Virus record (IMG/VR): IMGVR_UViG_3300028800_000064
Location: 33,241-97,240 of that record
Strand: one strand, 5' to 3'
DNA length: 64,000 nucleotides
Source of the DNA: a virus
Of this stretch, positions 48,655-49,149 are shown in pieces. Position 1 is the stretch's first letter. Every line of letters begins with the position of its first letter. The translations under genes were made by a program, and so were the position numbers. Below the pieces are notes generated by a model. That model was not told the DNA's origin, searched no databases, and worked only from the letters and a program-made list of their open reading frames with translations.

Positions 48655-49149
48655 ATGGCTACGCTGACAGAGGTGAAGCAGCAACGCAAGGCGTTCGACG
48701 GTCGAGACACCTACGAACGTTTTACAGCTTACTGCAAAAAGCAAGACCTGGAGCCGAACAAGAAAGCGTTGATGGCCTGGGATGAACACCACAACCACTT
48801 CGCAATTCGGGACAACTACGGCACTCAAAAAGATGTGTATGCGCTGGGACTCCTGACGCTATACGAACGGTTCCTTGTGAACAACTGTATGCGTATTCCG
48901 AATGGCGCGCCGGTGAAACTTCCTAACGGGGCCACGTATCAGCCGACAGTGACTGAGCATCGGCATGTCGGTGGGCGCGCAACCCAGTTGCGGGATATCA
49001 CCGCGCAGCAGCTAAACGTGATCCGCGACCAATTCCGCACCGAGCTGCGACAACTCCTACGCACCCAGAAGTTTTTCAATCTGTCCGCTGGGGATATTCG
49101 CGGGATCGTTGCCGATGTGCTGGAGGAAACGCTAGCGGAGAAAGAATAG
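48655..49149 (+). CDS. unknown protein inside the TIGR-like array
   Basis: The 164-aa soluble helical protein (MATLTEVKQQRKAFDGRDTY start) is encoded between array blocks 1 and 2, with AAAAGGAG before ATG 48655. It has a His-rich middle (WDEHHNHFAIRDNYGTQKD) and a helical C-terminus (LRQLLRTQKFFNLSAGDIRG). No family is recognised. It could be an accessory or processing factor, or cargo that split the array. Confidence 0.8.
   Translation: MATLTEVKQQRKAFDGRDTYERFTAYCKKQDLEPNKKALMAWDEHHNHFAIRDNYGTQKDVYALGLLTLYERFLVNNCMRIPNGAPVKLPNGATYQPTVTEHRHVGGRATQLRDITAQQLNVIRDQFRTELRQLLRTQKFFNLSAGDIRGIVADVLEETLAEKE

What the first reader, a model, noticed from the sequence alone, without database searches (positions are those of the whole stretch)
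48655..49149. Unknown 164-aa gene embedded between array blocks
The gene has its own ribosome site and splits the array 7+5. It matches no family I recognise. It could be a new component of the system, for example for guide processing, target interference or array growth, or an insertion.
Basis: inference. Interest (0 to 1): 0.7.

Follow-up and report, generated by a model that had tools for sequence, protein, structure and literature searches.

The report
TIGR-Tas accessory gene inside guide array
A small phage gene of unknown fold sits inside an RNA-guide array of the recently described TIGR-Tas kind, and the same gene sits at the same spot in two otherwise unrelated phages, so it is very probably a working part of that RNA-guided system rather than a chance insertion; what it does is not yet known.

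Summary
Window 48655-49149 is a real gene ("Z", 164 aa) inside a stem-loop TIGR array. The array has 14 units of strict geometry CCA-N9-TG-N4-CCA-N9-TG with palindromic arms (0 in 300 random sequences): one upstream of tas, one overlapping the tas stop, seven before Z and five after it. The neighbouring 343-aa protein is a Tas protein with TasR fold (VIA Z 19.2 to 9mty); its RuvC-like domain looks degenerate.

Homologues of Z were found in two more phages (35% identity), in the same place: Tas, array, Z, array. No homologue was found away from an array, although search recall was limited. Between the window phage and these two, only Tas, Z and a glycoside-hydrolase-108 protein are recognisably shared. 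Z is under purifying selection (dN/dS 0.16). A fourth phage with this Tas subfamily carries a 182-aa array-embedded gene whose kinship to Z is unproven. Other stem-loop TIGR phages carry a different embedded family (Y).

Z matches no family, and its AlphaFold model is too poor to use. Best reading: an undescribed accessory component of a TIGR-Tas variant, probably acting with the Tas ribonucleoprotein (inferred). Guide processing or array growth remain possible but unsupported.

The parts
48655..49149 (+). Gene Z: 164-aa array-embedded protein of unknown family (the finding)
   Evidence: ORF with Shine-Dalgarno-like sequence; homologues L011:7242-7724 and L012:7247-7729 in the same position; dN/dS 0.16
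47227..48258 (+). tas gene, 343 aa: Nop-domain Tas protein with an N-terminal RuvC/RNase H-like domain that looks degenerate
   Evidence: PDB 9mty (TasR) E 2.5e-11 by sequence, 1.5e-24 by profile; NCBIfam TIGR_Tas_endo 1.9e-23, 83.5 bits against cut-off 100; AF2 pLDDT 79, pTM 0.74; VIA-align Z 19.2, rmsd 4.6, 278 aligned to 9mty_B
47156..47203 (+). Guide unit 1, upstream of tas (spacers CGAAAACGT / AGCTCACAA)
   Evidence: fold z -2.05
48217..48258 (+). Guide unit 2, overlaps the 3' end and stop codon of tas
   Evidence: fold z -1.8
48267..48314 (+). Guide unit 3
48324..48367 (+). Guide unit 4
48372..48419 (+). Guide unit 5
48429..48470 (+). Guide unit 6
   Evidence: folding no better than shuffled sequence
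48477..48524 (+). Guide unit 7
48539..48584 (+). Guide unit 8
48593..48636 (+). Guide unit 9, ends 18 bases before the Z start codon
49157..49206 (+). Guide unit 10, first after Z
49215..49258 (+). Guide unit 11
49267..49316 (+). Guide unit 12
49323..49368 (+). Guide unit 13
49408..49451 (+). Guide unit 14
   Evidence: fold z -1.3

Best explanation
Z is an accessory protein of a stem-loop-array TIGR-Tas variant, made from inside the array. Shown here: Z lies between guide units, downstream of a tas gene of one subfamily, in three phages; the window phage shares almost nothing else with the other two; and Z is conserved as a protein. Inferred: tas, guides and Z are read as one + strand transcript; Tas binds each 9+9-nt guide unit; and Z works with the guide-loaded Tas. 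Because this Tas subfamily seems to have lost the RuvC catalytic residues, Z most likely supplies or modulates what the target-bound complex does (an effector, recruiter or stabiliser, in the position that TasParB is thought to hold for TasA). Being a component: about 0.75. This particular mode of action: about 0.35.
For: Same position and neighbours in 3 of 3 detected homologues. Tas (44%), Z (35%) and one glycoside-hydrolase-108 protein are the only recognisable proteins shared by the window phage (97 kb) and the other two (53 and 55 kb). Purifying selection on Z like that on Tas: dN/dS 0.16 and 0.11. No terminator-like site on the + strand between tas and the end of the array. Native base composition. 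A non-Tas gene between array blocks is a recurrent trait: family Y in 9 stem-loop arrays, family X in dual-repeat arrays, and an unassigned 182-aa ORF in L158, the fourth phage with this Tas subfamily. The Tas fold is TasR-like, but the first strand (residues 5-14) has no invariant acidic residue and only D62 and E70 are invariant acids in the N-terminal domain. The paper reports TasA loci in operon with ParB-like genes, and an inactive-RuvC TasR clade associated with stem arrays (PMC12045711).
Against: No physical or functional evidence that Z touches Tas or tigRNA. No recognisable domain, and the structure prediction failed (pLDDT 55, pTM 0.40). Only three homologues, two of them close relatives. 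Families X and Y are unrelated to Z by profile comparison, so the shared position could reflect tolerance of the array for inserted genes. Loss of nuclease activity in this Tas is inferred from an alignment of 4 sequences, not tested.
Confidence: 0.5

Rival explanations
1. Z is a guide-processing factor: it cuts or trims the pre-tigRNA between the stem-loop units.
For: It is encoded within the transcript to be processed; Faure et al. found that tigRNA processing is not done by the Tas nuclease itself and that the nuclease is unknown (PMC12045711).
Against: The paper reports that TIGR arrays from diverse sources are processed on heterologous expression in E. coli and suspects a conserved host RNase; its stem-loop TasA array was likewise processed to units in a pull-down. 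Z shows no nuclease family match.
Confidence: 0.12
2. Z is a translational or transcriptional regulator of its own locus, made when the array is processed or unprocessed and feeding back on tas or array expression.
For: Guide unit 9 ends 18 bases before the Z start codon, next to its Shine-Dalgarno sequence, so Tas binding or cleavage there could affect Z translation. A unit also lies just upstream of the Z start in L011 and L012.
Against: No DNA-binding domain recognised; guides have no matches in their own phage above chance, so guide-directed autoregulation is unsupported.
Confidence: 0.13
3. Z takes part in array growth or spacer replacement.
For: In the Z-bearing pair L011/L012 the spacers have turned over completely in place (41/144 identical bases, 28%, in 8 of 9 units) while boxes and arms stay near-identical. 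No adaptation machinery is known for TIGR (PMC12045711).
Against: Spacer turnover is also complete between L023 and L103, which lack Z, and dual-repeat arrays reshuffle without Z. Z has no recognisable recombinase, polymerase or nuclease domain.
Confidence: 0.07
4. Z is a cargo gene unrelated to TIGR function that happens to sit in the array region.
For: Different unrelated genes (X, Y, others) sit in arrays of other phages; the function of Z is unknown.
Against: Z is among only three proteins recognisably shared by the window phage and the other two, always inside the array next to tas; no homologue found elsewhere.
Confidence: 0.18

Closest known systems
TIGR-Tas systems with stem-loop arrays (Faure et al. 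2025, PMC12045711, Fig. 7)
   Same: Nop-domain Tas, tandem units with two 9-nt spacers between CCA (box C) and TG (box D), variable palindromic arms instead of edge repeats; the published Peromyscus gut example is also split into subarrays.
   Different: That example has a solo-Nop TasA, and its ~450-nt gaps are called intergenic; here the gap holds a conserved gene, and the Tas has a RuvC-like domain that looks degenerate.
TasR (PDB 9mty) and TasR with inactivated RuvC
   Same: Fold over residues 4-330 (VIA-align Z 19.2), two-domain architecture.
   Different: 22% identity over the structural alignment; no invariant acid in the first RuvC strand; NCBIfam endonuclease score below cut-off (83.5 against 100).
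TasParB (ParB-like gene in operon with tasA, PMC12045711)
   Same: An accessory gene next to tas with arrays on either side.
   Different: Z has no ParB match, and TasParB was described with TasA and dual-repeat arrays; whether family X here is TasParB was not established.

Membership tests
TIGR-Tas locus | Nop-domain Tas protein next to the array | tested here: met
   47227-48258: 9mty 1.5e-24, NCBIfam TIGR_Tas_endo 1.9e-23, Z 19.2 to 9mty_B
[quoted passage not shown]
   14 units with exactly 9-nt spacers, 0 in Markov null
TIGR-Tas locus (stem-loop type) | Variable palindromic arms around each unit instead of edge repeats | tested here: met
   arms of 5-9 bp, different in nearly every unit, folding z to -5.1
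TIGR-Tas locus | Array expressed and processed to tigRNA bound by Tas; RNA-guided DNA binding | not testable with these tools
   needs RNA-seq and biochemistry
TIGR-Tas endonuclease (NCBIfam NF052498 equivalog) | Score at or above curated cut-off of 100 bits | tested here: not met
   83.5 bits; so not filed as the endonuclease equivalog
Active TasR nuclease | Conserved acidic residues of the RuvC site, including an Asp in the first strand | tested here: inconclusive
   no invariant acid in residues 5-14; D62 and E70 invariant in 4 sequences; no residue-level structural comparison made
TasParB | ParB-like domain | tested here: not met
   no ParB hit for Z; no similarity to family X
Known phage-defence, CRISPR adaptation or processing proteins | Match to a Pfam, NCBIfam or PADLOC model | tested here: not met

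The most novel reading that the evidence does not exclude
Z is a dedicated partner protein, possibly of a new fold, that gives a nuclease-dead Tas its output on target DNA or rewrites the array's spacers in place. Either would make this a TIGR subtype with a second protein component and its own effector or adaptation step.
Probability: 0.25. Interest if true: 0.8.

Novelty: new variant of a known kind. Interest (0 to 1): 0.55.

Why it matters
TIGR-Tas systems were described as generally single-protein, with unknown guide maturation, unknown array growth and unclear roles for forms without nuclease activity. A conserved protein that travels with one Tas subfamily and is encoded inside its own guide array is a concrete, small, testable candidate for the missing factor. 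The same survey shows that array-embedded genes recur in stem-loop TIGR phages (families Y and Z), which points to an overlooked layer of these systems.

Tried and rejected
Single-protein scans of viral contigs with Z and Tas found nothing. A search with the two-sequence Z alignment returned only L013, and missed the true homologue L012, so recall is limited. Both genome-contig scans found nothing. The plasmid hit in Saccharothrix (E 0.01) lies antisense to an annotated gene and was rejected as chance. Pattern hits L006 and L008-L010 are chance or coding repeats. AlphaFold of Z gave pLDDT 55, and Foldseek against viral and PDB libraries gave nothing below E 0.5. Profile comparison of Z with families X and Y showed no similarity. 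L158's 182-aa gene: one-comparison E 2e-4 and hhalign P about 0.02-0.03 over the last 50 residues, not enough to call it a homologue. Guide targets were sought in the phage itself, in relatives and in all held loci with both tandem orders and gaps of 0-8 (0-6 for the held loci): at chance (1 found, 1.8 expected in its own phage; 25 against 26 over all held loci).

Full report
What is there. The finding's ORF (48655-49149, +, 164 aa, here called Z) is as described, with an A/G-rich ribosome site just upstream. It lies in an array of 14 units on the + strand, each CCA-N9-TG-N4-CCA-N9-TG with arms of 5-9 complementary bases that differ from unit to unit. None arises in 300 first-order Markov sequences, and most units fold well as RNA.

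The system. The adjacent 343-aa protein is a Tas protein. It matches PDB 9mty (TasR) at 2.5e-11 as a single sequence and 1.5e-24 as a profile, and NCBIfam's TIGR_Tas_endo at 1.9e-23, though below its curated cut-off. An AlphaFold model from four sequences (pLDDT 79, pTM 0.74) aligns to 9mty_B over residues 4-330 with Z 19.2 (rmsd 4.6, 278 aligned) and to IS110-family recombinases with Z about 14.8. The first strand of the RuvC-like domain has no invariant acid, so the nuclease is probably inactive (inference). The array corresponds to the stem-loop TIGR arrays of Faure et al. (PMC12045711).

Homologues of Z. A scan for tandem units found one phage contig (L007 = L011), and a Tas search found a second (L012). 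Both have tas, array, a Z homologue (L011: 35% identity over 88 aa to the window), more array, then an HNH-like gene. Z homologues occur nowhere else among roughly 220 held loci, nor in GenBank phages or plasmids, nor in 84,980 species genomes by pattern scan. Recall is limited: the pattern scan of viral contigs missed L012.

Why Z is probably a component. The 97-kb window phage and the 53- and 55-kb phages share only Tas, Z and one glycoside-hydrolase-108 protein (BLASTP E up to 1e-6). Tas, array and Z thus form a conserved block in otherwise unrelated genomes. Between L011 and L012 Z has dN/dS 0.16 (dS 0.40); Tas without its guide-encoding tail has 0.11. Z has the base composition of its neighbours and there is no terminator-like site on the + strand between tas and the array end.

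Wider pattern. Among several dozen TIGR loci gathered by pattern scans, a non-Tas gene between array blocks is common. Family X lies in dual-repeat arrays (7 loci). Family Y, about 220 aa, lies inside 9 stem-loop arrays, with further weaker hits in other loci. The fourth phage with the window's Tas subfamily (L158) has a 182-aa gene between units, with suggestive but unproven similarity to Z in the last 50 residues. X, Y and Z are not detectably related.

Mechanism. Shown: gene, array, Tas, co-conservation. Inferred: co-transcription, and Z acting with the Tas-tigRNA complex. Since the RuvC site looks degenerate, a role in producing or modulating the effect on target DNA is the most economical idea. 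Guide processing is less likely, since the paper finds arrays processed in E. coli and suspects a host enzyme. Array rewriting is unsupported, since arrays without Z also turn over their spacers.

Limits. Z has only three sequences, two of them close. Its structure prediction failed. Targets of the guides remain unknown: no tandem match above chance in own or related phages.

Noticed in passing
L011:6726-7910 against L012:6726-7910: In-place spacer turnover: in 8 of 9 comparable units the 9-nt spacers are 28% identical (41/144, chance 25%) while boxes, loops and most stem arms are nearly identical; one unit (L011:7117) keeps 16 of 18 spacer bases, which suggests one conserved target. No unit was gained or lost across the compared stretch.
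   Followed up: partly
window 48217-48258; L011:6726-6830; L012:6726-6830: Guide units overlap the 3' end of the tas coding sequence, so hypervariable spacers are translated as the Tas C-terminus.
   Followed up: partly
L023, L032, L081, L103, L123, L155, L195, L200, L213: Family Y: a conserved protein of about 220 aa embedded in stem-loop TIGR arrays, no Pfam or PHROG match where tested; candidate second TIGR accessory family.
   Followed up: partly
L025, L031, L040, L058, L088, L089, L101: Family X: proteins of 200-240 aa with a coiled-coil-like tail between dual-repeat array blocks; may be the published TasParB, but no ParB match was found by Pfam.
   Followed up: partly
L023 (- strand, 199-aa ORF at 6102-6701) and L104: A further array-embedded ORF with a DPPW motif, probably an MT-A70-type DNA methyltransferase (recalled, not tested by profile).
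   Followed up: no
L011:7882-8403, L012:7948-8418: HNH-like gene directly after the array (Pfam HNH_4 E 0.0014 for L011), its start overlapping or abutting the last guide unit; not seen after the array in the window.
   Followed up: no
L016, L021, L028, L041, L055, L059, L060: Related dual-repeat TIGR arrays share some half-spacers in new combinations, and L028 and L059 are identical in all spacers; a set for studying how TIGR arrays evolve.
   Followed up: partly
window 49377-49402: A hairpin (GAGACAC...GTGTCTC) without the CCA/TG boxes lies between units 13 and 14; possibly a degenerate unit.
   Followed up: no
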